Origin: Methylonatrum kenyense
GTDB taxonomy: Bacteria; Pseudomonadota; Gammaproteobacteria; Nitrococcales; Aquisalimonadaceae
NCBI RefSeq assembly: GCF_023195885.1
Contig: NZ_JALPKO010000001.1
Coordinates: 310,001 to 374,000, forward strand
DNA length: 64,000 bases
Direction: 5' to 3'
Of the stretch, positions 1,440 through 22,388 are shown piece by piece. How positions within the stretch are numbered: position 1 is the stretch's first letter; each line of letters begins with the position of its first letter. A program made the translations under genes and the position numbers. The notes under the pieces are model-generated. The model saw only the letters and a program-made list of their open reading frames with translations. It had not been told where the DNA came from and searched no databases.

Positions 1440-1471
1440 AGTCTGCCCGAGGCCCGCGACAGATTACGTCG
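1440..1471 (-). promoter_or_regulatory. Palindromic WYL-type promoter element for the ADP-ribosylglycohydrolase operon
   Basis: Read on the minus strand, the 15-bp element is CGACGT-AAT-CTGTCG (1471-1457). It is followed after 11 bp by the hexamer CAGACT (1445-1440), about 32 bp before the ATG at 1408. It is one of six copies of CGACAG-N3-CTGTCG in the window, each upstream of a gene start. No -35 box is evident at the usual distance. Confidence 0.6.
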
Positions 1472-1481
1472 GATGCCAAAA

Positions 1482-1513
1482 CGACAGGATCTGTCGGCAT
1501 CAACCCATAGGCT
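1482..1513 (+). promoter_or_regulatory. Palindromic WYL-type promoter element for phosphatase gene 1
   Basis: This is the perfect palindrome CGACAG-GAT-CTGTCG (1482-1496). After 11 bp comes TAGGCT (1508-1513) as a likely -10. Transcription would start near 1520, just before the GGAGG ribosome site at 1528-1532 and the ATG at 1539. It sits 10 bp from the oppositely oriented copy at 1457-1471, so the divergent region holds one element per direction. Confidence 0.65.
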
Positions 1514-1538: not shown

Positions 1539-2210
1539 ATGCCAGCAAGAAACCATCGCACCATCCGTACCAGCCAGACCAGTCCCCTTCGCATTGCTGC
1601 CGTCGATACCGCCGATGGCGGCGTCATCGGCATGACCTTTTGTCCGGGCAAGGTTGGCCCCGGACACAACTGCTTCTGGGAACGGGACGTCGCTGAGGAC
1701 CTGGAGGCAATCGCGGCCTGGCAGGCCGACCGGGTGATCACGCTGATGGAAGACCATGAACTGCAGGCCTACCAGGTCGCCGACCTGGGGTACCAGGTGC
1801 GAAAGCGCCTTGGCGACGATGCATGGTTGCACTTACCGATCCGCGACATGGATGTGCCGGACCCGCGGTTCGACGACCATTGGGAAAAGCAAGCGCCACG
1901 GCTTCATGCACTGCTGCGGGACAGCGGCCGCGTGCTTTTGCATTGCCTGGGCGGGCTGGGACGGACCGGCACCATCGCCGCCCGCCTGCTGGTGGAAACC
2001 GGAGTCGCCCCCACTGTTGCGATCCGCCGGGTGCGGCGGGCCCGCTGTGGCGCGATCGAACGAGACGTGCAGGAGACCTATGTCCGCGGCCTGCTGGACT
2101 GCCAGGCTGTCGTCGAGCGCATCAACGACAATCCCCACGCTGCCCGCCGGCTGGCGGACGGCCTGGCACAACTCGACCGACGCCTCTGGTCGAGGCAGGC
2201 GCTTTTCTGA
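1539..2210 (+). CDS. CDKN3-like dual-specificity protein phosphatase (copy 1)
   Basis: This 223-residue protein has the Cys-phosphatase loop HCLGGLGRTGT at about residues 135-145, with catalytic Cys136 and the loop Arg. A general-acid Asp is likely in the DMDVPD stretch. The GMTFCPGK segment near residues 30-37 is typical of the KAP/CDKN3-like branch. It should dephosphorylate a phosphoprotein or small phosphate in the cytoplasm. The frame is open upstream to 1344, but the start at 1539 is chosen because GGAGG precedes it by 6 bases and the upstream part would cross the promoter element. It closely resembles the gene at 7782, but its C-terminus is about 35 residues longer. It converges on the AAA+ gene with only 3 bases between stop codons. 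Confidence 0.88.
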   Translation: MPARNHRTIRTSQTSPLRIAAVDTADGGVIGMTFCPGKVGPGHNCFWERDVAEDLEAIAAWQADRVITLMEDHELQAYQVADLGYQVRKRLGDDAWLHLPIRDMDVPDPRFDDHWEKQAPRLHALLRDSGRVLLHCLGGLGRTGTIAARLLVETGVAPTVAIRRVRRARCGAIERDVQETYVRGLLDCQAVVERINDNPHAARRLADGLAQLDRRLWSRQALF

Positions 2211-2213
2211 ACG

Positions 2214-4314
2214 TCAGACGAAACCAATCATCTGCCGGGGGGCATCGGGCTTGAGCTCCGACTCCCCGGCCAGCCCCTGTACCACTTCCTCCACCGACAA
2301 GGTCACGCCCAGGCGCTGGTGACGCCGGGCGATGGTGGCGAAGTCGCCGGGCGCCAGGTTTTCCAGACGATCCAGTCGCCGGCTCAGGCGTTGGGTCGAA
2401 AGCTCGTCCGGCCTGGTCCAGGCCCAGCGTCTGCAAGAGGTGCAGGAACAAACGCCAGCGGCGGTCCGGTTCCGGGTAGGCGAAAGTTACCTTGGCGTCG
2501 AAACGACGCAGTGCCGCGTGGTCGGTGGCGCTCAGATGATTGGTGGCGCAGAGAAACACGCCCTCGAAGTCCTCCATATTGGTCAGCAGCTCGTTGACCT
2601 GGGTGACTTCCCAGCTGGCGCGAGCGGTCTCGCGGGAGCGCAGCAGGCTGTCGGCCTCGTCCAGGAACAACACGGCACCGGTCTGCTCGGCCTCGCGGAA
2701 CATCGCGCCAATGCGTTGCTCGGTCATGCCGACCAGCGGGCGCAGCAGGTCCGAGGCGCCCTGGCGCATCAGCGGACGGCCGAGGGCCTCGGCGAGGTGT
2801 CGGGCGAATGCGGTCTTGCCGGTGCCCGGGGGCCCATGCAGCAGCAGCGTACCGGCGCCACTGCGTTTGAGTCCGGCCATCAGCCGCGACAACTCCATAT
2901 CGGCCTGCACCAAGTCTAGGGACCACGGCATCGGGCTTGCGGGCCTTTTCGGTAGACCACGTTCGCCCTGCAGTTCCATGTGGCGTGACAGCTGCTCGGT
3001 CATCAGGTCTTCCACGTCGGGACCTTCGGCACCGCCCTGGAGCAGGCCGGTTAGCTGCACCACCTGGCGCAGTTGGGCCGGGGTGACCATCGAAGCCGCA
3101 GCGATGCGCTCGCGCCACGATTCGGACACCGGTGCGTCACCGCAGCACCGGTCCACGATCCGTCGCCGGACCTCCCTGGGCGGATGACCGATCTCCAGCA
3201 GGAACTGGAACCGCCGGCGATGGGCGGCGTCGAGGCCGCGCAAGTCGTTGGCGATCCAGATGGTAGGGAGAGGGTTGGTCTCCAGCCGGTGGTGCAGCCA
3301 GGCCTTGCCGCCGGTGGTGCCGGGACGTCGGAATACCACTCGATCTCCGCCATCGCCGTAGGCATCCTCGATTTCGTCGAAGAGAACCAGCGTAGACTCC
3401 CGATTGGCCAGCACCCCCTGGCAGAGGTGCCAGGCCACCAGACGGTGCCGCGGCGGCAGGGCCTCGCCGGTATCGCTTTCGTGACTGATTTCCTTGAGCT
3501 CCAGGCCGGCCTCCGCCGCGACCAGGCGGGCGAACTCCGTTTTACCAGTGCCCGGCGGACCATAGAGCAACACGTTGACGCCGGACCGCCGCTCGGCGAC
3601 GGCGATCCGCAGCAATGATTGCAGTTGATCGAACGCCGTTCGCAGATGCGGGATGTCATCGGGAGAGATGGTCGGGCGTGCCCCTTCGACGAAAAAGCCA
3701 GCGAAGGCGGCGTCGCTCATCGCACTTGAGCACAGCGCCCGCCGCAGGCCTGGAAGCAACTCAATCGAGATGCGGCCGTGGGGGCCGAAGCGCTCGTCAA
3801 CGCTGACCAGACCCGTCCGCATCAGCGGACTGCGGGGAGAGAGTGCCTGCTCCACGGCCTGCGGATCCGCGCGTAGTACGGCCGCCAGGACCTGCTCGAG
3901 CCGGCCCCGAGAGCCCTGCAGCGCCATGCCCATCGCGTTTTCGAGAGACATGTGGACGGGGAGTTCCAGCAGGAATGTGACGAGTTCCCGCTCCACCGGC
4001 CCGAGACCCAGGCGTTGCACAAGGAAATCGATATTGCGGGCGGTCACCGCATCCGGTGCGATCTTGCGACGCTCCAGTCGGCGGAGTTTTTCCGTCATCT
4101 GTTCCCGCGCCCGTCGGGGCGTCATCAGGCGTTCCGACTTGTCATCCATCGGCAGGCCGCAGATCAAGGCGAGTTCATCGTCCTTGTAGCCGAGACGTCC
4201 GAACAGCTCCCGGTGGCCATTGGCGCGCAGCAGCAGCCGCAGGCACCAGCGCTGGATCATTGGATCGCGTTGGACGGTTTCGTCGAGATAGGGATGCAGA
4301 CGTGGTTTGGGCAT
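2214..4314 (-). CDS. Tandem AAA+ ATPase with an apparent frameshift near the C-terminus
   Basis: A roughly 200-residue helical N-terminus precedes two AAA+ modules. The first has Walker A GPPGTGKT at 252-259 and Walker B LVLFDEIED at 309-317. The second has Walker A GPPGTGKT at 494-501 and Walker B LFLDEADSLL at 549-558. A remodelling role is likely, in which the first module lacks a strict DExD but keeps DE. As written, the frame runs on to 2122 with a Pro/Gly/Arg-rich tail that overlaps the convergent phosphatase gene. Removing one base near 2408 restores a tail containing ELSTQRLSRRLDRLENL and LAPGDFATIARRHQ and ending in PRQMIGFV, with a TGA at 2216-2214. That tail looks like the normal end of this ATPase family. 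It is either a sequencing error or a recent frameshift. Promoter element at 4343-4373. Confidence 0.8.
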
Positions 4315-4342: not shown

Positions 4343-4373
4343 ATGCTACGGGCCTGTGCGACAAATTCTGTCG
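4343..4373 (-). promoter_or_regulatory. Palindromic WYL-type promoter element for the AAA+ ATPase
   Basis: The minus-strand element is CGACAG-AAT-TTGTCG (4373-4359), followed after 10 bp by TAGCAT (4348-4343). The ATG at 4314 lies about 29 bases downstream of the hexamer, preceded by CAGGAG. Layout matches the other five copies. Confidence 0.6.
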
Positions 4374-4528: not shown

Positions 4529-4576
4529 ATTCTGCGGCGCACTGCGACAGCTCACGTCGCAGAAGCCATGCATGAT
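4529..4576. promoter_or_regulatory. Palindromic WYL-type promoter element, apparently bidirectional
   Basis: CGACAG-CTC-ACGTCG lies at 4545-4559. On the plus strand CATGAT follows after 11 bp (4571-4576), which would put the transcript start near 4583, at the second ATG of the large gene. On the minus strand CAGAAT follows after 10 bp (4534-4529), upstream of the 37-residue peptide gene. Confidence 0.5.
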
Positions 4577-4582
4577 GCGGTT

Positions 4583-6421
4583 ATGACGAAAACCGTGCGA
4601 CTTGAGGGAAACGTTTCACATGGCACATTGCGGTTCACCGTAAACCCCGACGCCCTCGGCGGCAGTGCGGTGCGCAATGCCCCAAAGCGACTGGCCATCA
4701 CCGAACCTCGCCTGCGAGCCCTGGATGTTCGACAGAGTCCGGATCTTCGGCTTCTGGATCTGCAGCATTGCGCTCGTGGGCTGCACCTGAACCTGACAGA
4801 CACACCGAATCTTCGGCATGTCCTCCTTCCACAAAGCGGACCGGGAGCGGTGATTCATCTGGACGCCAGCGAGCACCTACCGAGTCTCACGCTCAGCGGA
4901 CGCATTGCGTCGGTGGACGCGTGTTTCACGCGATGTACCGGGAGACTGCAGGCCTGCGGGCCGGGACTCAATCGCGTCGTGATCGGCCAGCGGCTCGTTG
5001 CAGATGCGGACGCTGCAATCCTGCTGCACGCAACGCCAGCCGACCTGCGAAGCCTGCGGAGAGCAAGACAACTAAAACAGCTGGAGCTGCTTGGCTGTGC
5101 CCTGGGAGGCATCCAGGACTTTGGCAGCCCTCCGGAGCTTCACCGGTTACGGATTTTCGAAGGAACTCCCTGTCAGGTGATCATGGTGCCGCAAGGTTTA
5201 AAGCGTCTTGAGATCGAGGGGTTTGCCGACCTTACGGACATCATCGGTTCCGGCGCCTTCCTGCGGCTACGCGACTGCCGAACCAACAGACTCGACCTGC
5301 AAGATGACTGGCGGCGAGTGCTGGTCGACGGCGGGAACTATGAACGGCTGGAAGCCCAGCATGCGAAGGCGATCGAACTACGCGGCGTTGCCGTGACGGA
5401 TTGCCTGAGGGTTGGCCGGGCCACACGACTCCGAATTTCCGGAGATTATCCGCGGCGGATCGATGGTGGCCGAGTCGATTTCCGAACCGGATCGGATCGA
5501 GCCATCAATCAACTGCTGCATGCCCGTTCCGATGGCCCGCTCGGCGGCGAACGCGAGTTGCACGACTTCTTCGGTCGGGCAGCAAACCGCATGGAATGCC
5601 TGCATCGCCTTTACATGCTGAAGCGGATGATCGGCAAGGCTTCACCGGAACGACTCTGGGAACTTCGCTGTATGACCCACGCCGCGCAGCAGCGCAGCCC
5701 CAGTCAGCCGCGTCCAGCGGTTACGGAGGCGGTTCGCTTCGCAGAAAACGCCTGGCGATGGGATTTTCCGAACGGCTTGGATTACGAAGGCTGGGCCGCA
5801 GACCTGGCACTGGCAGAGGCGATTTGCGACAGCCCCAGCATCGCCGGCATCCTGCAACGACTTGGCAAAGATGGCCAACTGCAGCCTGTCCGGGCACTCG
5901 GGAATCATATCCATGTAAGGACCCAGCAGGGGCAGCTTAATGCCGTGCCACCAACGTTTATTAAAGCCTTTCAGACTGGTCTTGATCTGTTGCTGGAGCG
6001 GTTTGCGCCTGATCCTTCCGAGCCAGTCCGCGCTGCCGACCTGCAGCCCATTCTCAATGCACTTGTCGCGTTGCATCGGCGCCAGCAGGCCAACAAGCTG
6101 AGACAACGGCTCCCTGCCTGGACCGCGGAAGAGGATCAGGTTGCCCTCCTCGATTACCTGGCAGCGCACGGCTTACAGGCGGCTCGGATCGACCTGATCG
6201 CGTTCGCGCAGCAAGCGAGGAATGAGCCGACTAGCCCCCAGATTGGCGAACAAGCATGGCGTGCGGCACTCGCACCGCCACGGAGCGCGGCTTTGGCTAA
6301 CGGGACTCGCACCGCGGGGGCTGGAACCCTCAACAAGGGTAGCCGGAGCGCAAGGTGTCACGTAGCTTCATATTCAGGACGAAAAACGCAGAAAAGACAG
6401 GTGAAAAAAACAAATGACTGA
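4583..6421 (+). CDS. Large leucine-rich, beta-repeat-like protein of unknown function
   Basis: The protein has about 612 residues and no recognised catalytic motif. The first roughly 300 residues alternate short hydrophobic strands with polar turns (for example LRLLDLQHC, LHLNLTDTPNLRHVLL, HLPSLTLSGR, LKQLELLGC, LKRLEIEG), which suggests a degenerate leucine-rich or parallel beta-helix repeat. The C-terminal part is helical and ends in a basic segment. ATGs at 4568 and 4583 are in frame; 4583 is preferred because the inferred -10 at 4571-4576 would make 4568 untranscribed, implying a leaderless message. The stop overlaps the next start (ATGACTGA at 6414-6421), so it leads a three-gene operon. 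A substrate- or ligand-recognition role is conceivable but unsupported. Confidence 0.6.
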   Translation: MTKTVRLEGNVSHGTLRFTVNPDALGGSAVRNAPKRLAITEPRLRALDVRQSPDLRLLDLQHCARGLHLNLTDTPNLRHVLLPQSGPGAVIHLDASEHLPSLTLSGRIASVDACFTRCTGRLQACGPGLNRVVIGQRLVADADAAILLHATPADLRSLRRARQLKQLELLGCALGGIQDFGSPPELHRLRIFEGTPCQVIMVPQGLKRLEIEGFADLTDIIGSGAFLRLRDCRTNRLDLQDDWRRVLVDGGNYERLEAQHAKAIELRGVAVTDCLRVGRATRLRISGDYPRRIDGGRVDFRTGSDRAINQLLHARSDGPLGGERELHDFFGRAANRMECLHRLYMLKRMIGKASPERLWELRCMTHAAQQRSPSQPRPAVTEAVRFAENAWRWDFPNGLDYEGWAADLALAEAICDSPSIAGILQRLGKDGQLQPVRALGNHIHVRTQQGQLNAVPPTFIKAFQTGLDLLLERFAPDPSEPVRAADLQPILNALVALHRRQQANKLRQRLPAWTAEEDQVALLDYLAAHGLQAARIDLIAFAQQARNEPTSPQIGEQAWRAALAPPRSAALANGTRTAGAGTLNKGSRSARCHVASYSGRKTQKRQVKKTND

Positions 6422-7721: not shown

Positions 7722-7753
7722 CGACAGACCCTGTCGCACGATTGCCCGATACT
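7722..7753 (+). promoter_or_regulatory. Palindromic WYL-type promoter element for phosphatase gene 2
   Basis: The element CGACAG-ACC-CTGTCG is perfect (7722-7736). After 11 bp comes GATACT (7748-7753), 28 bases before the ATG at 7782. The hexamer is identical to that at 21748-21753. Confidence 0.65.
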
Positions 7754-7781: not shown

Positions 7782-8351
7782 ATGATCTTCAAAAAGTATC
7801 CGGTAATGAGTAGCACCAACAGCCCACTTCGCATCCACGGCGTGGAGACAGCCGAGGGCGGAATCATCGGCATGACCCTGTGCCCGGGGAAGATCGGCCG
7901 GGGTCGCCGTTGTTATTGGAGACGGGATCTGGCTGCGGATCTCGCGGTGATTGCCGACTGGGGTGCAGAACGGATTATCACCCTGATGGAGGACCACGAA
8001 CTCCTCACTTTCCAGGTCAGCGACATCGGCTATCGCACCGAGCGGCACCTTGGGCCCGATGCCTGGTTGCATCTGCCAATCGTGGACATGGATATACCCG
8101 ACCAGCGCTTCGAGCAAGGTTGGAGCGATTGCAGAAAGGGCATTCACCAGGTTCTGGAGCGTGGCGGACGGATTCTGGTGCACTGCCTCGGCGGACTCGG
8201 TCGGACTGGCACGGTCGCCGCCCGAATTCTTGTCGAGACGGGAGTAATGCCGAACGACGCGATCCATCGCGTGCGCAGCGCGCGACCCGGTGCGATCGAA
8301 CGCGAAACCCAAGCGCATTACGTGGACGGTCTGCTCGACCCGAGCGGCTGA
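7782..8351 (+). CDS. CDKN3-like dual-specificity protein phosphatase (copy 2)
   Basis: This 189-residue paralogue of the protein at 1539 shares SPLRI, GIIGMTLCPGKIG, ITLMEDHEL, DAWLHLPI and the catalytic loop HCLGGLGRTGT (Cys near residue 135). It ends soon after the domain, whereas copy 1 has a longer tail. An in-frame ATG at 7806 (MSSTNSPLR) is an alternative start that aligns about as well; neither has a strong ribosome site. It has its own palindromic promoter. Two paralogues bracketing the island suggest duplication, with substrates possibly differing. The expected activity is removal of phosphate from Tyr/Ser/Thr or a small molecule in the cytoplasm. Confidence 0.85.
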   Translation: MIFKKYPVMSSTNSPLRIHGVETAEGGIIGMTLCPGKIGRGRRCYWRRDLAADLAVIADWGAERIITLMEDHELLTFQVSDIGYRTERHLGPDAWLHLPIVDMDIPDQRFEQGWSDCRKGIHQVLERGGRILVHCLGGLGRTGTVAARILVETGVMPNDAIHRVRSARPGAIERETQAHYVDGLLDPSG

Positions 8352-12364: not shown

Positions 12365-12592
12365 TCAGTCCCCGCCCGGTGGCTGGTGCGGACTGCGGTA
12401 GCCCGGCTCCACCGTGTATTTCAGCCGACCGTCGCGGTCGCGCACCTCGGTGGTACCGCCGATGCCCTCGGTGGTGTAGCCGATGATGCGGCCGTCGGCA
12501 TCCCGGATCGTGGGCTGGCCGTAGTGCGGCGGCACGGTACCGCAGGCCGCCAGCAGGCAGGCCAGCCCGATTGCTGTCGCGGCCTTGGCCAT
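12365..12592 (-). CDS. Small lipoprotein
   Basis: Start at ATG 12592, directly preceded by GGAGGGGAT. The 75-residue product has the lipoprotein signal MAKAATAIGLACLLAACGT with Cys17 or nearby as the lipidated residue. The mature part, containing TIRDADGRIIGYTTEG and TTEVRDRDGRLKYTVEPGY, looks like two beta hairpins of a DUF-type small lipoprotein. It should be anchored in the outer or inner membrane. It heads the small operon 12592-11331. Confidence 0.65.
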   Translation of the reverse strand: MAKAATAIGLACLLAACGTVPPHYGQPTIRDADGRIIGYTTEGIGGTTEVRDRDGRLKYTVEPGYRSPHQPPGGD

Positions 12593-12645
12593 ATCCCCTC
12601 CTCCCGCTTGGTTTGCAGCGCTCAATATGACGATGCCGTGCGACA

Positions 12646-13414
12646 TCAGGTGTCGCTGGTGGGCAGAAACAGCCGCTGATCCCACCAGACCGGCTCCGCA
12701 GTACGGACCTCGATCTGTTCGAAGTCCGCATGCTCCGGGTTGATGATGACATCAGGGAAACACTGACTTATTCCCACGCCTGCGTTGGAGTCCGCATTTT
12801 TTCCGAGGCAAGGCGCGCTGCGCAGCGCCGCAGTCATTCTGCGGTCAAGCAGCGCAACACAGCATTCGGGAAAAATGCGGCCCAACCCGAAGGGCCCGGC
12901 CGGTTTTGGTCCCTGGCGGTGTTGCGCTACCGGCCCGGTAGCTACGGCTACCGAACCGGCACCGCGCCTTGCCAGATGACCAAAACCGGTCTCGGGCGCG
13001 GGCGCGGGAATAAATCAGTGTTTCCCTAGGTTCGATCCGTGCCACGAATGACGGAACGAACAGCACCGCGGTGCGTTTTTCTGCCGCCCATTGAACACCG
13101 TACTCGCGAGCGGAGCCGCAGTCCGGGGCTGCCCAGTCGGGCAAGTGTTCCGGGCTGACGATCTCGTAATCCAGCCCGTGGGGCAGACTGATCTGAATGA
13201 AGTGTTGATCCGGCGGCATCAGGCCATTGGCGTGGGCGAGCTTTTCCAGCATGGCGGTGGAGTAGTGCTCGCTGGCGTAGATGACCGGTGTGTCGGCGTC
13301 GTTCCAGCAGCCCGGGTAGATGGTCGAGCCCGTGGCATCGAAAATCGAAAACTCCCCGTGGGGATCCCCGATCCGATAGGCCGTTCGGGGTCGATCAAGC
13401 CGTCGTGGGGTCAA
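12646..13414 (-). pseudogene. RES-domain toxin gene interrupted by a MITE
   Basis: The N-terminal part (13414 to about 13028) carries RES features: TAYRIGDPHGEFS, IYASEHYSTAMLEKLAH and the PSFVARIE strand. The frame then enters the MITE. After the element, the same frame resumes at about 12753 with DVIINPEHADFEQI and ends in DQRLFLPTSDT (stop at 12646). That is the expected end of a RES domain (a typical INPxHxDF block). Joined, the two parts give about 165 residues, the normal size. RES toxins degrade or ADP-ribosylate using NAD. The insertion should inactivate the toxin. Its start overlaps the antitoxin stop (ATGA). Confidence 0.8.
12754..13027. mobile_element. 274-bp MITE inserted in the RES toxin gene
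   Basis: The terminal inverted repeats are 27 bp with two mismatches. The left reads AGGGAAACACTGACTTATTC and onward; the right, reversed, reads AGGGAAACACTGATTTATTC and onward. No transposase is encoded. The inside contains an inverted pair (GCCGGTTTTGGT near 12898 and ACCAAAACCGG near 12979) able to fold into a long hairpin. A clear target duplication cannot be seen. Left-end fragments recur at 11262, 25540 and 26477, right-end-like copies at 40430 and 56605, and bare ends at 42837, 45817 and 54590. Confidence 0.75.
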
Positions 13415-13928: not shown

Positions 13929-15131
13929 CTAAGCCCGCTCGGTCTCCAACGCCTGTAGCCTCGACCGCAAATAACGAAAACCAATGCGCTCCTGCTCCAG
14001 TCGAAGCCGCTCACCTAAGACGTTGTCTCTCAGGTCCACGTACAGTGACTGCTCCTCCGCGGTGAGCTGGCTGAGTTCCCCGGTAACGCGTTTTTCCTTG
14101 TCCTCGCATCCCCATAACGCGCGATGTGTATTGAGGGTCATTCGGTCCATCAGCAGCGAGCGAGCCTGCGGTATTTGGGTTCGCAGCCGGTGGAGCATGT
14201 CGAAGCCGTAGGTATCGATATCCCCCGAGTAATAAACTTCCACGTCCTGAAGCCAGTCCACCCGCGCCAGCCGCTTCAGCCCGTACCCCAGGCCGAAGAT
14301 AACCAGACTGTCCGGGTGCGCTGGGAAGACTAGGCCATTGATCTCATTCTCGGTGATGAAGACCCGGCGTACCGGCAGCCGCAGCGCCGCGAACTGATTG
14401 ATGGGGACGGACAGATCGCTCATTCCCTGAACGTAAAGCGCCGGGTCCAATAGCCGGAAACGCACCAGCGCCGGTTTTTCCCGCAGACCGTAGCGCCGCT
14501 CGAAGCCACGGGCGCCGGTAGCCGCTGGGTCGATGGCGGCCTCTGGGAGCACGGCGTCCAGCAATTCCACGAACAACTTTCGCCTGGCTTCAATAAACTT
14601 GGTATCGACCCCTTGGATGTCCAATTGCCGAAGGTAAATGCCGGGCCGGGGATGGGCGCGGAACCAGTCCAGTACCGCCAGCACCCGAAGCCAGGCTTCG
14701 GCCTCGGCCAGCACCTGCAGGGGCCGTCGCGCCAGCCAATCGGTCAGTTGCGGGAAGCGGCGCAAGGTCTCGTTGGCCAGGGCCTGGAAGCGCTCCGCCT
14801 CCTGCGTCTTGCCAATCAGGCGCAGGCCATCTGCCTCGCTGGGCACCATGGCACCGTCCGGCAGGTCGTTGGCCCCGTGCACCCGGTGGTTCACCCGTCG
14901 CCAGGTGATCTCGTAGCCGTAACCCCGGGCCTCCCGGCTTCCCGCCTGCAGTTGTTGCACCCAGGCCCGCACGGCGGCGAAGTCGCCGGCAAGGTCGCGC
15001 GAGCCGGGCCGTCGCAACCGTAGCCGGTGGGGAAACAACGCCTCCCCCCGCACCGTCGCGGCCAGCCAGTCGCCCCGCTCCCACAGGCTCAGCAACTGCC
15101 CGCGCAATTCATCGTGGGTGGTCCAGCTCAT
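13929..15131 (-). CDS. jetD: Wadjet protein JetD, TOPRIM-type nuclease
   Basis: The 400-residue protein has an N-terminal DUF3322-like arm domain and a C-terminal DUF2220 TOPRIM-like domain. The acidic residues are visible in TENEING (about 260-266) and SGDIDTYGF (about 302-310). In characterised Wadjet systems JetD cuts small closed-circular plasmid DNA after extrusion by the JetABC motor. The ATG overlaps the jetC stop (ATGA). All likely catalytic residues are kept, so the system looks complete. Confidence 0.92.
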
Positions 15132-18100
15132 GGGGCGATCCGTTGCCGGGCAGCCTTCTCGGCCTGGTATTCCTCGATGGTGAGGTTGCGCAGCATCGAC
15201 TCCCGCCCTTCCACGTTGTGTACAAAGCCGACGCTGGCCACAAACGGCTCGATGATGTGGATCTTCTGCAGCGGCGTGACGACCAGCAGTTGCAGGTTGA
15301 GCCGACGGAACAGTTCAAGCCCGTAGCGGGCGGATTCGTCCGAGCCACGGCCGAAGGCCTCGTCGATCACCACGAAGCGGAACGACCGCGAGCGGGTCTC
15401 GCCCCATTCCAGCCCGAACTGGTAGGCGAGGCTCGCCGCCAGCACGGTATAGGCGAGCTTTTCCTTCTGCCCGCCGGACTTGCCGCCGGAGTCGGTGTAG
15501 TGCTCATACTCGCTGTCGTCCTCGCGCCAGCGCTCGGAGGCCGAAAACACGAACCAGTTGCGCACGTCGGTCACCTTGCGGGTCCAGCGCCGGTCCAGCT
15601 CCGTGGTGCCGTCACGGCCGCGAAAGCGCTCGATGATGGCCTTTACCTGCAGGAACTTGGCCTCGGAGTACTGATCGCCGTCAGAGCCGGTGACCGCGCC
15701 TTCCGTGCAGGCGCGCAGGCTCTGCTGGAAATCGCGGATTTCCGGGTCGGTCGCGGTTTCCGCCAGCAGGGTGATGTAGCGGTTGTCGTTGTAGTCGATC
15801 TCGCGCAGGGAGCGGTTGATGGTGCCGATGCGCTCGACAATGGCCTGGCGCTCGCGATGCAGGCGGCTCTGGAACGCCGCCACCTCGCGGATGGTGTTTT
15901 CGTTCAGCAGTTCCTTGAAGCGGGCCTCGAAGCGGGGCAGATCATCGGCCTGGAGCTGATCCAGCATGGTACGGTAGTCGCCGGCCGACTCGATGCTGAC
16001 ATCCACCTCCTGGCTGTCCAGCGGCCAGGCATCCTGGTAGCGGCGCATGGCGTCGATGATGCGGTCGCGCAGGTCCTTCAGGCGGCGGTCGACGGCGTCG
16101 ATAGCGCGCTGCAGCCAGTCCCGCATGTCCTTTTCCCGGTTGTCGCAGGACTCCACCGTGAGGGTGTGCTCGCCCAGGGCCTTGTCGCGCATCACGGCGA
16201 GGCGGGGGAAGTAGCGCTGTTGCGCCGTCTCGGGTGTTGCCGCCAGCAGGGTGCGGCAGTCCTGCTGCTGCGCCTCGGCCTGCTCCCGCTTCAGCTCGAC
16301 GGTGCTGCGCTGGCCGTAGGCGTCACGCTCCTCGGTCTCCGTGGCGGCAATCGCGTCTTCCAGTTCGCGCAGTTGCCCCTCCAGCGCCCGCAGCACGTCG
16401 GACCCCTCGGCCAGTTCCCGGTATTCCCGGTTCAGGGCCTCGATGTCCGCCGCCAGCAGCCGCCAGTCCAGGGCCTGAAAATCCCGGAACAGGGACAGCT
16501 CCTGGATGCTGTCGCGGCGGGTGTCCTGATCGCGCTGTTCCTGCTGCCACTGGCTGATGCGCCCGGCGATGTCGTGCATGCGCCGGGCGATGCCCTCGGC
16601 ATACGCTTCAAGGGCAGCGATCTTGGCCTCGTTACTCCAGCCGAGCACATAGCGCGCACGGTCGTCGATGCGGTGGCGGTCGTCCTTCTCGTGGCGACCG
16701 CCGCCGGCCTTGATCTGCCCGGCGCGGGTAATGGCGCGCTTCTCCCGGCGGAACTGCTGCAAATCGGTGCAGCAGGCATAGTCGAAGCGGCGAGCGAGCT
16801 CCTGCTCCAGCCAGCCGTAGAAGGCTGACTCCGGACGCACCGCCAGCTTGCGCACCAGCGATTGCGGCTGCAGTTGCGGCGGCGGGGCGTCGCGGGCTTC
16901 GCGCACCCGGTAGTACACTAGGCGGCCGCGCAGGTGGGTGCGGTCGACCCACTCGGCCACCCGGGCGTAGTGGTCGTCGGGCACCAGCAGCGACAGGCCG
17001 ACGTTGTGCAGCACCCGCTCGATGGCGCCTTCCCAGTCGCGCTCATCATCCCGCACCTGCAGCAGCTCACCGACGAAAGGCACCGCCTCGGCGGGGACAT
17101 CCAGCGCCTGGCAGAGCGCCTCGCGGATGGCGAGCATGGCCGCGGGAATGTTCGACCGGCGGCCGCGAAGGGACTCCAGCTCGGTCTCCAGTTCTTGATG
17201 ACGGCCCTTCTGCTGGTGCAGATCCACGCTGGCTTCGGTAATGAGACTCTGCAGCTCGCCACGCGCCGCCTCAGTGGCCTCGCGGGCCCGGCCGAGGGCC
17301 TCGCGATTGGCCTGGAATGCGTCAACGCTGGTTGCGTCGGGCAGGTCCAGACCATGAGCCAGCGCCCGGTAGCGCTCGGCCTGGGCCCGTCGCTCGGCCT
17401 TTTCCCGCTCCTTGCGCTCGCGCTCGGCCTTGATGCGTTCGAGCCGGTCGCCGCCGTTGTCGGCAATGGCCTGCTTCAATTCGTCGCGTTGGGCGCGTTG
17501 CTCGGTGAGCCGGGCGCTCAGGCCCTGGATGCGCTGCTGCAGGCGTTCATGTTCATCACGCAGATTGTCCAGCCGCCGCGCCAGCAGTTCGCTCTTTAAC
17601 AGGGCAAACCAGGGCCGCAGGGCCTCGCGGCAGTGGCGTAGCTCGTCGGCGCGGCTGGCCCGCTGGTCGTGCTCGTCGGCGTCGCGCACCAGGGGCGCAA
17701 GCTGTTCCACCTGCGCCTTCGCCTTCAGCACGGCCTCGTGGGCCCGGTTGAGGTCATCGAAGTGGCGGATCAGCCCGTCGATGCGCTCCTCCACCGGGAA
17801 GGCCTCCAGCATGTGACCGCGCACGAACTCGGTGAGATTGCCTACCGACTTCATCGACACCGTCTGGTTGAACAGCTCCAGCGCCTGGTCGTTGTCGATA
17901 CCGAAGCGGCGTCGGAAAGCGCCACCGTAGGGGGGAAAGGTGTCATGCAATTCCACGTGGGGCAGCTCACGCAGGCGTTTGCGCAGGGTGGCGAGATCGC
18001 TGCCGAAGTTGGCGAAGTGCTCGGCGATGTTCAATTCGCGGTCCGCCACCAGGAAAAACCGCGCCGGCTGCCCCTGGGCATCCTTCACCCAGAACACCTG

Positions 18101-18505
18101 CGCCAGGGTGACATCCTGGGCGAAGCCTTCGTTGTGGAAGTGCCCGAGTATGACGGAATAGCTGCTGTGGTCGCGCAGCCCCACGGGCTTGCTGGCAAGC
18201 CCCGTATCGCTGCGCTCGGACTTGTAATAGCCCAGCACGTAGGAGCGCAGGCTGCGCTCCCTGGCCTCGGCACCGGCGGCCTTGTTGTAGGTGATGCGCT
18301 GGGCCGGCACCAGCAGCGTGGTAACGGCATCCACCAAGGTGGACTTGCCCGAGCCGATGTCGCCGGTGAGCAGGCAGTTGTCGCCCCCGGGCCGCAGCGA
18401 CCAGACACGGTTGTGAAACGTGCCCCAGTTGTACACCTCGAGGCGATCCAGGCGAAAGCCGGTGCGCTCGTCGGAGGCGGCGAATTCCAGCCCTTGCAGG
18501 TCCAT
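15128..18505 (-). CDS. jetC: Wadjet SMC-like ATPase JetC
   Basis: The 1125-residue SMC/MukB-like protein has Walker [10 protein letters not shown] at 48-56. Long charged coiled-coil arms (about 240-480 and 640-900, for example [20 protein letters not shown]) flank a hinge-like middle. Near the C-terminus are the signature [13 protein letters not shown] and Walker [18 protein letters not shown]. It is the motor that extrudes DNA loops with JetA (kleisin) and JetB (KITE). Length is typical. It starts 2 bases after jetB. Confidence 0.93.
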
Positions 18506-18507
18506 GC

Positions 18508-19101
18508 TCAGCCCTCCGCCCCGGTGGCGCTGTCAGCGTGCTCGCGGTAGTCCGCCAGGCGCTGGTCGAACTCAGCCAGCCACTGGGCATCGACATAGCC
18601 CTTGATGATACGGCGGACCTCGTAGTGGTTGTCCTGCCCGCGCAGGCGGCGCAGGAAGCCGAGCTCGACCACCTTGTTGATGTCGGCGTGCACCCGATCC
18701 ACCAGCTTGGCCTCGTTGGCGCCGGCGGGCAGAAAGACACGGATCAGCTCCACGATCTGCTCCCGCGACAGGATCAGCCGCGGATCACCGCCGCCGGCAT
18801 CGTGCTCCACCAGCTTCTTGCGCAGCAGGGCCAGCAGCAGGCTGACGGGGTAGCTGAGCTGCCGGCGCGGCACCAGCCGGGGCAGCTCCGGCTCGCCCTC
18901 CGCGGGCGCGCGCTGACGCAGGCAGGCATGGCCCTCGGCCTCGTCCAGCAGCAGCTCCAGCCCCAACACGGCCACGTGATCCCGCACCCGGGCCTGGTGG
19001 TCGTGTAGCACCTGCCAGTAGCGGGGGTTCTGGTCCTTGTACAGCACACCCTTGAACAGGGTGATCAGCATGGCGGAGAACGCGCCTTCCTCTTCACTCA
19101 T
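18508..19101 (-). CDS. jetB: Wadjet KITE-like subunit JetB (DUF4194)
   Basis: Start at ATG 19101 ([20 protein letters not shown]), 4 bases after the jetA stop, giving 197 residues. The frame is open further upstream but only in antisense-like sequence over jetA. DUF4194 features include [12 protein letters not shown], a winged-helix-like [20 protein letters not shown] segment, and an acidic middle. In Wadjet and Mks systems this subunit binds the kleisin JetA and helps load DNA. Confidence 0.9.
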
Positions 19102-19105
19102 GGGC

Positions 19106-20542
19106 TCAACGACTGAATATGACCCGGGGTAGCGTGGCGCTGCGGGGAACGCCCTGGCGATCGTGCCAGTATACGGTCTGCTGGTCGCTTTCATCGATGA
19201 CGCTGCGATGGTCGTCCGCCGCCAGGGCGAGATAGGCCACCAGCTCGGCCAGCCCCTGCTCCAGCGGATGCTGTTCAAGCAACCCGCTCAGACTCACCTG
19301 CTCGCGGGTCTGCAAGGCCTGGCGGATGCGCGCCTGCAGCAGGGCGCGATCCACAAAGGCCTGCTCGAACAGCGCACCGGCGTCGCCGTCGGCCTCGCCC
19401 TCCTCCAGCACCTGCTGGGCGATGTGCGGCGTCATCGGCGGGCTGTAGAGCGGCCGCTCCATGGGCAGTTCCACCCGGGGCGCGGGCTCATCAAGACGCA
19501 TGGCCAGATCCCGGGGTGGTGATTCCCGAAGCGCCAGCGCATGCTGCTCCAGGTCGCGGATCAGGCCCATGATGCGGCGGTTCTCAAGCCAGGCCTGGTC
19601 GTCGATATAGCGGCGCAACTGCTCCGAGAGCCGCGCCACCACCCGCTGTGTGTGTTCACCGGCGGCCAGCCAATCGTAGTGGATACGGCCCAGGGCCGGG
19701 TCGGGGTCGAGTTCGGCCACCGGGGCCAGGGCCAGGGTGCGCGCCAGCAACTCGCTCAGCTCCTCCTGCCGGGAGGGAGACATGAGCAAATCCCAGAAGG
19801 CGCGGAAGCTGCGGCCCTGGTCGGAGTCGGCAATGCGGTCATGCTCGCCGAACACCTGGTCGAGCACATCGCCCTTGCCGCCCTCCCAGGTGGCCACCTG
19901 CTCGCGCACCTGGCGGTCCAGCCTGCGGAAATTCGCCTCCACCTGGCGGAAGTCGCCCAACAGCCCGCGCGCCGTGTCGGCCATCTGCAGAAAACGCTCG
20001 CGCAGACGGGTGGGGTCCATCAGGTTCAGATGGCCGGCGCGCACATCCTCGATCTCGCGCTCGATGGCTTCGCGCCGGGTTTCCAGGTCGCGCAGACGGG
20101 CTTCCGGGTCGGTCTCGGCGCCGTCCACGATCTGTTGCAGCAAATCGAACACCAGCGTGAGGCGCGATTCGGCGCCAATGAAGTGGGGCTGCTCAAGCCC
20201 GGTCAACCAACGGATGGCCTGCTCGGTGGCGGGGGTGAGATCGAAGTGGGGCTCGTCGCTGTGCTGCGGATAATACTTACGCAACCAACCGCGCTCGTTA
20301 GCGGCCCAGTCCGCTAGGTATTCGCAGGCAGCGCGCGGGAAAACAGCCGCATCTACCTGAATCCGCAAGGTGTAGAGGTAATCTTCCAGCGCGTTTTCGA
20401 GTTCTGACGCGGGGAGGGCACGTGCGTTCGGTTTGACAAAGCAACGGTGGAAAAACGCAATAATCATCGGGGCATTGTCAGCTTGTAATAGCCGCCAACC
20501 CGGATGCAACCGACGTAAACTTTGGAGGCTCTTAAACTCCAT
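19106..20542 (-). CDS. jetA: Wadjet kleisin-like subunit JetA (DUF3375)
   Basis: Start at ATG 20542 (MEFKSLQSLRRLHPGWRLLQ), with AGG 7-9 bases upstream, giving 478 residues. It matches DUF3375: the N-terminal LHPGWRLLQADNAPMIIAFF, a helical middle with RETREAIEREIED-like charged helices, and the C-terminal RSVIDESDQQTVYW and LPRVIFSR. It links the two heads of JetC. The gene order jetA-jetB-jetC-jetD is that of type I Wadjet. It lies 63 bases after the WYL gene. Confidence 0.92.
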   Translation of the reverse strand: MEFKSLQSLRRLHPGWRLLQADNAPMIIAFFHRCFVKPNARALPASELENALEDYLYTLRIQVDAAVFPRAACEYLADWAANERGWLRKYYPQHSDEPHFDLTPATEQAIRWLTGLEQPHFIGAESRLTLVFDLLQQIVDGAETDPEARLRDLETRREAIEREIEDVRAGHLNLMDPTRLRERFLQMADTARGLLGDFRQVEANFRRLDRQVREQVATWEGGKGDVLDQVFGEHDRIADSDQGRSFRAFWDLLMSPSRQEELSELLARTLALAPVAELDPDPALGRIHYDWLAAGEHTQRVVARLSEQLRRYIDDQAWLENRRIMGLIRDLEQHALALRESPPRDLAMRLDEPAPRVELPMERPLYSPPMTPHIAQQVLEEGEADGDAGALFEQAFVDRALLQARIRQALQTREQVSLSGLLEQHPLEQGLAELVAYLALAADDHRSVIDESDQQTVYWHDRQGVPRSATLPRVIFSR

Positions 20543-20605
20543 AAAACCTGCCCGATTTACCCTGCAGTCGTTGAATGTGCTGCCACAAACCACCAATAAA
20601 TATAG

Positions 20606-21598
20606 TCAGCCGTTATAGCGAGCCGCCGCCTGCGTCAGGGTGTCCGCCACCCACTGCCGGAGTGCGGCGGGCTCCAGCACCTCAACCTGCTCACCGAAAC
20701 CGAGCAGCCACCAGCCGAGCTGATTGGTGTGCAGCAGGCGGGCCGAGATCTGCACCCAGCCATCGCCATCCGGTTCGATGCGCTGATCCTCGCTCAGCGG
20801 CGATTCGGCCAGGTGTTTGGCCGGCTCGGCGGCCATGCGGATGCGGAGCTGGATGGGGCCCTCGGGAAAATCCAGCGGCTGCTGCTCGAGGTAGTCCCCG
20901 GCCGAAAATCCGGGCAATGGGGTCAGCGGAGTGTCCAGTAACTCGGGATTGCGCATGCGGTGCAGCACCAGATGCAGCACATCGTCATAGTCCTCCAGCG
21001 TCGCCAAGAGGTAGATCACCCCTTCGCGAAGCACGACGGCCCGCGGACTGACCAGCCGGCGGTGCCAACCGTGGTCACTGCGGCGCTGATAATCGACGCG
21101 GAACTGCCGTTCGCGCAATAAGGCCTCGTAGACAACGGCCAGCACCTCCTGGGGGACCTCCGGCGCAAGCAGGCGTTGACCGCGATGCTGGACATGAACC
21201 TTCTCCGGCCAGCCGGCCACCACGGCCGGGGCCTCGCTCAACACACGGGCTGCCTGATCGAAATGCGGTTGCAAGGCCTCCAGCGTACTCGGCGCCATCA
21301 ACGGCGTCAGAAACCGCCTGGCCAGCGAGAAGCTGAGCGCCGTCTGCGGATCCATGCCGGGAATGTCCATGACCGAGGCGTCCTCGGACCAGCACCAGCC
21401 ATATGGTCGATTGCGCTCGTCCGAGCGCAGCGGAAAGAGCGAACCGGAAAGTTTCTGCAAATCCCGCTGGATGGTGCGCTCGGTGACCTCGTAGCCCTGG
21501 GCGTTCAACCGGCTCGCGAGGTCCTGGACGCTGATCTTGCGCGGCGCCCGGGGGATCAACTGCAGCATCGTCCAGTGACGCAGCATGGTGTCAGCCAT
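20606..21598 (-). CDS. WYL-domain transcriptional regulator
   Basis: The 330-residue protein has an N-terminal HTH (LASRLNAQGYEVTERTIQRD, about 27-46), then a WYL domain around 150-240 (FRVDYQRRSDHGWHRRLVSP and a WYL-like VIYLLATL), and a C-terminal WCX-type extension. WYL regulators sense ligands such as single-stranded DNA or nucleotides and often control phage-defence genes. It lies upstream of jetA on the same strand and probably co-transcribes with jetABCD. The palindrome at 21723-21737 is in its upstream region and is shared with five other sites near 1-8 kb, so I infer it is the regulator of that set. Confidence 0.88.
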   Translation of the reverse strand: MADTMLRHWTMLQLIPRAPRKISVQDLASRLNAQGYEVTERTIQRDLQKLSGSLFPLRSDERNRPYGWCWSEDASVMDIPGMDPQTALSFSLARRFLTPLMAPSTLEALQPHFDQAARVLSEAPAVVAGWPEKVHVQHRGQRLLAPEVPQEVLAVVYEALLRERQFRVDYQRRSDHGWHRRLVSPRAVVLREGVIYLLATLEDYDDVLHLVLHRMRNPELLDTPLTPLPGFSAGDYLEQQPLDFPEGPIQLRIRMAAEPAKHLAESPLSEDQRIEPDGDGWVQISARLLHTNQLGWWLLGFGEQVEVLEPAALRQWVADTLTQAAARYNG

Positions 21599-21705: not shown

Positions 21706-21753
21706 ACCATCAGGTGTGGCTGCGACAGACCCCGTCGCGACACCGGGGATACT
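21706..21753. promoter_or_regulatory. Palindromic WYL-type promoter element between the WYL gene and the Cys-rich gene
   Basis: CGACAG-ACC-CCGTCG lies at 21723-21737. On the plus strand GATACT follows after 10 bp (21748-21753), before the GGGAGG ribosome site and the ATG at 21774. On the minus strand GATGGT follows after 11 bp (21711-21706), 108 bases before the WYL start, so autoregulation is possible. Confidence 0.6.
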
Positions 21754-21773
21754 GGTAGCAGGGAGGTAACGCC

Positions 21774-22388
21774 ATGTCCGAACCATCATCGTCATCAAGA
21801 CGATCCGGAATTTCTGCTCGGGACTCGTTCCGGGACGTTCCATACGCCTTGCTGGTGCTGACCCTATTGCTGTGGAACGGGTCAGCTTTTGGCGGATCGC
21901 CAGAACATGTGGCCAACTCGCCTGGCACGTCCCCGGCGGTGGAACACTCGTCGGAAACCCTGCTGGTCACGGGCGGACGGTGCTACAGCAACGTGGAATG
22001 CGGCGGTGGCGTGTGCCGGTCGGGGCAATGCACGACGGCGGGCGGGCGCTGTTATTCCAACGCAGAATGTGCGGGTGGCACCTGTCGCAGCGGTGTCTGC
22101 ACCAGTGCCGGTGGCCGTTGCTACAGCAATAGCGAATGCCCGGGCGGCATCTGCCGTTCCGGTAGCTGCACCACGGCCGGCGCCCGCTGCTATTCGGACA
22201 GCGAATGCGCCGGCGGACGCTGCCGGTCCGGGCAATGCACAACCGCTGGCGGTCCATGCTACGCCAACAGCGAATGCGGCGGCGGCGTCTGCCGCAGCGG
22301 CCAATGCACGACGGCGGGCGGTAGGTGCTATGCGGACGCGGAGTGCCCGAACGGCCGCTGCCGCTCGGGACGTTGCACGTCTCGTTGA
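21774..22388 (+). CDS. Exported cysteine-rich repeat protein
   Basis: The 204-residue protein has a signal or anchor segment (YALLVLTLLLWNGSAFG, about 24-40). A 26-residue linker leads to six tandem 23-residue repeats of form GGRCYSNxECxGGxCRSGxC plus TTA, each with four Cys. The 24 Cys are spaced C-x5-C-x4-C-x4-C, and no other domain is present. The repeats probably form small disulfide or metal-bound modules in the periplasm or outside the cell, similar in spacing to Dickkopf-like or EB-type Cys modules; that comparison is loose. The ATG is preceded by GGGAGG, and the palindromic promoter is 36 bases upstream. Its place in the regulon is unexplained. Confidence 0.7.
   Translation: MSEPSSSSRRSGISARDSFRDVPYALLVLTLLLWNGSAFGGSPEHVANSPGTSPAVEHSSETLLVTGGRCYSNVECGGGVCRSGQCTTAGGRCYSNAECAGGTCRSGVCTSAGGRCYSNSECPGGICRSGSCTTAGARCYSDSECAGGRCRSGQCTTAGGPCYANSECGGGVCRSGQCTTAGGRCYADAECPNGRCRSGRCTSR
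21972..22385 (+). repeat. Six tandem 69-bp coding repeats
   Basis: Each unit encodes one 23-residue four-Cys module. Units diverge mainly at the third codon position and in the variable residues around the Cys, indicating selection on the protein. Confidence 0.85.

What the first reader, a model, noticed from the sequence alone, without database searches (positions are those of the whole stretch)
21774..22388. Exported protein of six four-Cys 23-residue repeats under the shared promoter
Twenty-four cysteines in strict register (C-x5-C-x4-C-x4-C) are unusual for bacteria, and the promoter element ties it to the regulon. It might be an extracellular binding module, toxin-like protein or metal sink.
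Basis: partly seen in the sequence, partly recalled or inferred. Interest (0 to 1): 0.6.

Follow-up and report, generated by a model that had tools for sequence, protein, structure and literature searches.

The report
Exported six-repeat cysteine protein, WYL promoter
A soda-lake gammaproteobacterium carries a small exported protein built from six copies of a four-cysteine, 23-residue module of a known myxobacterial repeat family, and its promoter carries the same operator as a neighbouring phage-defence island, most likely read by the WYL-domain regulator encoded next door.

Summary
Window 21774-22388 (+) encodes 204 aa: an N-terminal export signal, a linker, and six 23-residue repeats whose 24 cysteines are spaced x5-x4-x4 (x6 between repeats) without exception. 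The repeats belong to a known NCBIfam family, TIGR04201 (Myxo_Cys_RPT, 42.5 bits, cut-off 25), founded on the Myxococcus outer-membrane-exchange receptor TraA. Close repeat-only relatives (71-81% identity) occur in myxobacterial metagenome bins and one other gammaproteobacterial bin. The 'shared promoter' is real: a CGAC-N7-GTCG palindrome 10-11 nt upstream of a NATNNT -10 box, nine times in the genome, seven of them in a 29-kb defence island. It matches the published site of the ssDNA-activated WYL activator DriD. The only WYL gene found in this genome is the divergent neighbour (20606-21598, heading the Wadjet jetABCD genes), and its best solved relatives are DriD. Palindrome and -10 box are conserved in a congener, but there the Cys-rich gene is absent; two other congeners have the gene, interrupted, without a WYL gene. 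Best reading: an exported, disulfide-clamped structural or binding protein, switched on with the island by the WYL regulator. What it binds is unknown.

The parts
21774..22388 (+). CDS of the exported six-repeat Cys-rich protein (204 aa)
21774..21893 (+). export signal, residues 1-40 (hydrophobic stretch 22-40, cleavage-like AFG/G)
   Evidence: sequence and hydropathy; no predictor run
21894..21971 (+). linker between signal and first repeat (residues 41-66)
21972..22040 (+). repeat 1 GGRCYSNVECGGGVCRSGQCTTA
22041..22109 (+). repeat 2 GGRCYSNAECAGGTCRSGVCTSA
22110..22178 (+). repeat 3 GGRCYSNSECPGGICRSGSCTTA
22179..22247 (+). repeat 4 GARCYSDSECAGGRCRSGQCTTA
22248..22316 (+). repeat 5 GGPCYANSECGGGVCRSGQCTTA
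22317..22385 (+). repeat 6 GGRCYADAECPNGRCRSGRCTSR
21761..21766 (+). Shine-Dalgarno-like GGGAGG
   Evidence: sequence
21723..21737 (.). operator palindrome CGAC-AGACCCC-GTCG
   Evidence: conserved in congener G001
21748..21753 (+). -10 box GATACT, 10 nt after the palindrome, reading towards the Cys-rich gene
21706..21711 (-). possible -10 GATGGT reading towards the WYL-jet genes (not conserved in G001)
20606..21598 (-). WYL/WCX-domain HTH regulator, only WYL gene found in the genome, best solved relatives DriD
13929..20596 (-). Wadjet type I jetABCD downstream of the WYL gene
7722..7736 (.). same operator with GATACT, before a DSP phosphatase-like gene (7782-8351 +)
12641..12655 (.). same operator before a small lipoprotein-like ORF (12365-12685 -)
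4359..4373 (.). same operator before an AAA ATPase gene (2122-4314 -)
4545..4559 (.). same operator (CGAC-N7-GTCG) before ORF 4568-6421 +
1457..1496 (.). two operators (1457-1471 and 1482-1496) between an ADP-ribosylglycohydrolase gene (626-1408 -) and a DSP phosphatase-like gene (ATG at 1539 +)

Best explanation
It is a Sec-type exported protein made only of TIGR04201-type repeats. Each 23-residue repeat is most likely an autonomous two-disulfide mini-module (a short helical turn plus a beta-hairpin, probably bonded C1-C3 and C2-C4), so six of them form a rigid, protease-resistant string outside the cytoplasm that works as a surface or periplasmic spacer or binding scaffold, as the same repeats appear to do in myxobacterial TraA. 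In this strain its transcription is governed by the divergently encoded DriD-like WYL regulator through the CGAC-N7-GTCG operator over the -35 region, so it would be made together with the neighbouring defence island, plausibly when the regulator senses ssDNA. Shown: family membership, register, purifying selection between repeats, presence and conservation of the operator and -10 box. Inferred: export, disulfide pairing, WYL binding, induction by DNA damage, structural or binding role.
For: TIGR04201 42.5 bits against a cut-off of 25, six stretches. Repeat-only relatives with hydrophobic N-termini, 71-81% identical, in myxobacterial bins and one gammaproteobacterial bin; one has a weak, sub-cut-off MYXO-CTERM surface-sorting tail (14.7 bits, cut-off 20). 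TraA, the founding TIGR04201 protein, is a cell-surface receptor and two of its repeats are dispensable (PMC3325183; PMC6626042). AlphaFold with nine sequences: the same turn plus hairpin in every repeat, mean pLDDT 69. dN well below dS. DsbB present. Promoter: the composite motif CGAC-N7-GTCG-N10/11-NATNNT occurs 9 times in the genome against 2 for the reversed control, 7 of the 9 in C1:302989-331753; 5 in the window against 0.14 expected. The only WYL match in the genome is the divergent neighbour, and its best solved hits are DriD. DriD's published site is ATACGAC(X)7GTCGTAT, overlapping the -35 at a fixed distance from the -10, and DriD activates the operon divergent from its own gene (PMC12340889). 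Of 24 WYL homologues in relatives, 7 have the palindrome within 350 bp upstream, about 0.2 expected. Palindrome plus GATACT are conserved in G001 while the surrounding bases diverge.
Against: No ligand, anchor or partner identified. In congener G001 the operator and WYL gene are conserved but the Cys-rich gene is absent. In G002 and G003 the gene exists but with in-frame stops or a frameshift, no WYL homologue at the cut-off used, and no operator upstream in G003 (G002's copy lies at a contig end), so the regulatory link is not conserved. Myxobacterial relatives lack the operator. The structure model is of middling confidence and has no significant fold match. Disulfide pairing is untested.
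Confidence: 0.45

Rival explanations
1. Passenger: the WYL-controlled divergent promoter existed before, and the Cys-rich gene merely came to lie behind it; it is expressed with the regulon but has no role in defence or damage response, and is being lost in the genus.
For: G001 keeps promoter and WYL without the gene; G002 and G003 copies are broken and lie elsewhere; no conserved neighbours among relatives.
Against: In this strain the ORF is intact, with strong purifying selection between repeats, a good Shine-Dalgarno and a well-placed -10. The stops in G002 and G003 could be assembly errors in draft bins.
Confidence: 0.3
2. Secreted knottin-like antimicrobial or toxin: the repeats act on other cells, whole or cut into single modules, released when the regulator is triggered, as bacteriocins are by DNA damage.
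For: The cysteine framework C-x5-C-x4-C-x4-C is the same as that of the antimicrobial peptide LEAP-2 (2l1q), E 0.054, not significant; Foldseek's weak hits are small venom knottins with E above 5; one relative (L033) exceeds the cut-off of Pfam Toxin_29; an operator linked to stress.
Against: No immunity gene, peptidase or transporter beside it. Repeats are only mildly basic and Gly-rich. All fold matches are non-significant. The protein itself scores below the Toxin_29 and EB cut-offs.
Confidence: 0.1
3. Metal or thiol sink in the envelope.
For: 24 cysteines in 138 residues.
Against: No CxxC or CxC and no His in the repeats; an even number of Cys per module, predicted export and a DsbB-type oxidation pathway favour disulfides.
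Confidence: 0.05

Closest known systems
TIGR04201 Myxo_Cys_RPT repeats, e.g. TraA of Myxococcus xanthus
   Same: 22-23 residue Cys repeat in tandem in exported proteins; model matched above cut-off in six stretches
   Different: TraA adds a PA14 recognition domain and a MYXO-CTERM anchor (PMC3325183), and its family has three invariant and two marginal Cys; this protein is repeats only, in a gammaproteobacterium, with four invariant Cys per repeat
Repeat-only Cys proteins of Polyangia/Myxococcales bins (L028-L031, L033-L035) and gammaproteobacterial bin L032
   Same: same repeat GGxCYSDSECxGGxCRSGxCTTA, 5-7 copies, 71-81% identity
   Different: no WYL operator upstream; two carry a Pro-rich tail ending in a membrane anchor-like segment
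EB module (PF01683), DUF7107 and Toxin_29 of animals
   Same: similar Cys framework; relative L032 passes the EB and DUF7107 cut-offs and L033 passes that of Toxin_29
   Different: the window protein scores below the EB cut-off (21.5 against 24.3) and the Toxin_29 cut-off
Cystine-stabilised beta-sheet mini-modules (Min-23 from EETI-II; LEAP-2)
   Same: 23 residues and two disulfides suffice for an autonomous fold (Min-23, PMC6259850); LEAP-2 has the same Cys spacing
   Different: no significant sequence or fold match; pairing in this protein is untested
DriD regulon of Caulobacter crescentus
   Same: CGAC-N7-GTCG over the -35 with fixed distance to a weak -10, divergent promoter at the WYL gene (PMC12340889)
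   Different: here the likely targets are a defence island, recC and this Cys-rich gene; the WYL protein is only distantly similar to DriD (E 2.8e-6)

Membership tests
TIGR04201 Myxo_Cys_RPT | NCBIfam model score at or above the curated cut-off of 25 bits | tested here: met
   42.5 bits, six stretches; relatives 34-56 bits
TIGR04201 Myxo_Cys_RPT | exported protein | tested here: inconclusive
   hydrophobic N-terminal stretch and cleavage-like site here and in relatives; no predictor or experiment
TraA-type OM exchange receptor | PA14 domain and MYXO-CTERM tail | tested here: not met
   no such domain in Pfam or NCBIfam scans
EB module PF01683 | Pfam gathering score 24.3 | tested here: not met
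   21.5 bits
Knottin / inhibitor cystine knot | three knotted disulfides (six Cys) per module | tested here: not met
   four Cys per module; at most the two-disulfide core
Metallothionein-like | CxC / CxxC metal clusters | tested here: not met
   none present
DriD-type WYL operon | CGAC-N7-GTCG overlapping the -35 at fixed distance from the -10 | tested here: met
   published site in PMC12340889
DriD-type WYL operon | HTH-WYL-WCX regulator present | tested here: met
   WYL and WCX above Pfam cut-offs, HTH_11 just below
DriD-type WYL operon | ssDNA-dependent activation | not testable with these tools
   needs a binding or reporter assay

The most novel reading that the evidence does not exclude
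A damage-sensing WYL activator switches on, together with Wadjet, RecBCD and other island genes, an exported disulfide-rich repeat protein that shields or decorates the cell surface, making envelope change an inducible arm of a phage-defence island.
Probability: 0.08. Interest if true: 0.75.

Novelty: new member of a known kind. Interest (0 to 1): 0.4.

Why it matters
The protein itself extends a myxobacterial surface-repeat family into alkaliphilic gammaproteobacteria. The promoter is the more useful part: it gives a testable operator and regulator for a whole defence island, with recC outside it, pointing to SOS-independent, WYL-based co-regulation of DNA repair, phage defence and an envelope protein.

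Tried and rejected
Raoultella plasmid hit: the annotated gene there reads a DNA tandem repeat in another frame and does not have the cysteine pattern. Phage records and viral contigs: no relative. TIGR04201 search of genomes: the tool's first look misses so short a model, even in the own genome where the protein scores 42.5 bits, so no absence is inferred. Selenocysteine at the TGA in the G002 copy: SelB stays below its cut-off in the window genome and all three congeners, so read as a stop. Single-sequence AlphaFold: pLDDT 55, not used. Fold searches with the better model gave nothing significant. The loose composite operator across relatives barely separates genomes with and without the WYL gene (my tally: 43 sites against 14 control, versus 33 against 21); only the strict form does (9 sites in 12 WYL-bearing genomes, 0 in 13 without, counted by eye). 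The operator-like site in G003 contig 162 lies inside coding sequence.

Full report
What is there. Window 21774-22388 (+) is a 204-residue ORF with a Shine-Dalgarno, a hydrophobic N-terminal stretch (residues 22-40), a 26-residue linker and six 23-residue repeats of consensus GGRCYSNSECxGGxCRSGxCTTA. The cysteine spacing is perfectly regular, 6-5-5-7, through all 24 cysteines. The DNA repeats are 69 nt apart and only 62-73% identical to the reference copy, while the proteins are much more alike; any two repeats differ by 5-12 synonymous codons, with dN 0.17-0.46 against dS 0.6 to saturation. This is an old array kept by selection, not a recent slippage product. It occurs once in the 2.95-Mb genome.

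What it is. NCBIfam TIGR04201 (Myxo_Cys_RPT) matches at 42.5 bits, cut-off 25. That family was made for the repeats of TraA, the Myxococcus cell-surface receptor for outer-membrane exchange (PMC3325183), in which two repeats are dispensable (PMC6626042). A scan of 84,980 species found ten loci. Seven are from myxobacterial or deltaproteobacterial bins and one from a gammaproteobacterial bin, encoding repeat-only proteins at 71-81% identity with 5-7 repeats in the complete copies; the other two appear, from their contig lengths and sequence, to be the congener copies already found. Two of the myxobacterial ones end in a Pro-rich, membrane-anchor-like tail; one gives a weak MYXO-CTERM match below cut-off. 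Neighbouring genes are not conserved.

Structure. AlphaFold with nine sequences predicts in every repeat a short helical turn before the second cysteine and a hairpin at CRSGxC (pLDDT 69); no significant fold match was found. The four-Cys framework equals that of LEAP-2 (E 0.054, not significant), and 23 residues with two disulfides are known to be enough for a cystine-stabilised beta-sheet unit (Min-23, PMC6259850). I infer two disulfides per repeat, C1-C3 and C2-C4; the pairing is a guess from these frameworks, not a result. Lack of CxxC, CxC and His and the presence of DsbB argue against a metal sink.

The promoter. Upstream lies CGACAGACCCCGTCG (21723-21737) and, 10 nt later, GATACT. The composite CGAC-N7-GTCG-N10/11-NATNNT occurs nine times in the genome against two for the reversed control, seven of the nine in C1:302989-331753; in the window five against 0.14 in shuffles with 10-12 nt spacing. 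The strict palindrome CGACA-N5-TGTCG has 12 genomic sites, seven of them in C1:302989-322641; among the rest is one 50 nt upstream of recC and several inside coding sequence. Genes behind the island sites include AAA ATPases, a vWA/metallopeptidase-like protein, DSP phosphatase-like proteins, an ADP-ribosylglycohydrolase and a GIY-YIG protein; Wadjet jetABCD and ZacBC lie in the same island.

The likely regulator. Divergent from the Cys-rich gene and ahead of jetABCD is an HTH-WYL-WCX protein (20606-21598), the only WYL match found in the genome. Its best solved relatives are the WYL proteins of entries 7tzv, 7u02, 9cu3, 9pfq and 8tp8; 7tzv is named as DriD in PMC12340889, the others I take to be DriD from general knowledge. 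DriD is activated by ssDNA, binds ATACGAC(X)7GTCGTAT overlapping poor -35 elements at a fixed distance from the -10, and activates the operon divergent from its own gene (PMC12340889). Eight of 25 WYL loci examined (seven of 24 without the window's own) have the palindrome in the 350 bp upstream, with about 0.2 expected. In congener G001 (WYL 88% identical over the 146 residues present) the palindrome and GATACT on the Cys-gene side are conserved inside otherwise diverged sequence, while the opposite -10-like box is not. This fits a DriD-like divergent promoter.

Limits. The link between this gene and the regulon is seen in one strain. G001 has the promoter but another gene there. G002 and G003 have the gene, interrupted, with no WYL homologue at the cut-off used. 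It may be a passenger. Its ligand and anchor are unknown, and export rests on the look of the N-terminus.

Verdict. Real, and a new member of a known repeat family; the regulatory setting is the more interesting part. Interest 0.4.

Noticed in passing
C1:302989-331753 (window start to 21753, and L019): A 29-kb defence island with at least nine CGAC-N7-GTCG operators in front of diverse genes, probably one WYL-controlled regulon; worth its own study.
   Followed up: partly
L020:3914-3928: The same strict palindrome lies 50 nt upstream of the recC start codon, about 36 kb away from the island.
   Followed up: partly
L019:1697-7988: ZacB and ZacC (PADLOC) homologues upstream of the island.
   Followed up: no
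window 4568-6421 and L019:11221-12957: Two similar-looking proteins of about 600 aa without any Pfam match, each behind an operator of the regulon.
   Followed up: no
window 4545-4583: The -10 of the operator at 4545 overlaps the first ATG at 4568; a start at 4583 would give a nearly leaderless transcript.
   Followed up: no
L025:1501-1866: The congener G002 copy has TGA at a cysteine codon; SelB is not found above cut-off, so probably a broken gene or an assembly error.
   Followed up: yes
G028: A same-order genome with a WYL homologue has five strict composite operator sites, suggesting a comparable regulon there.
   Followed up: no
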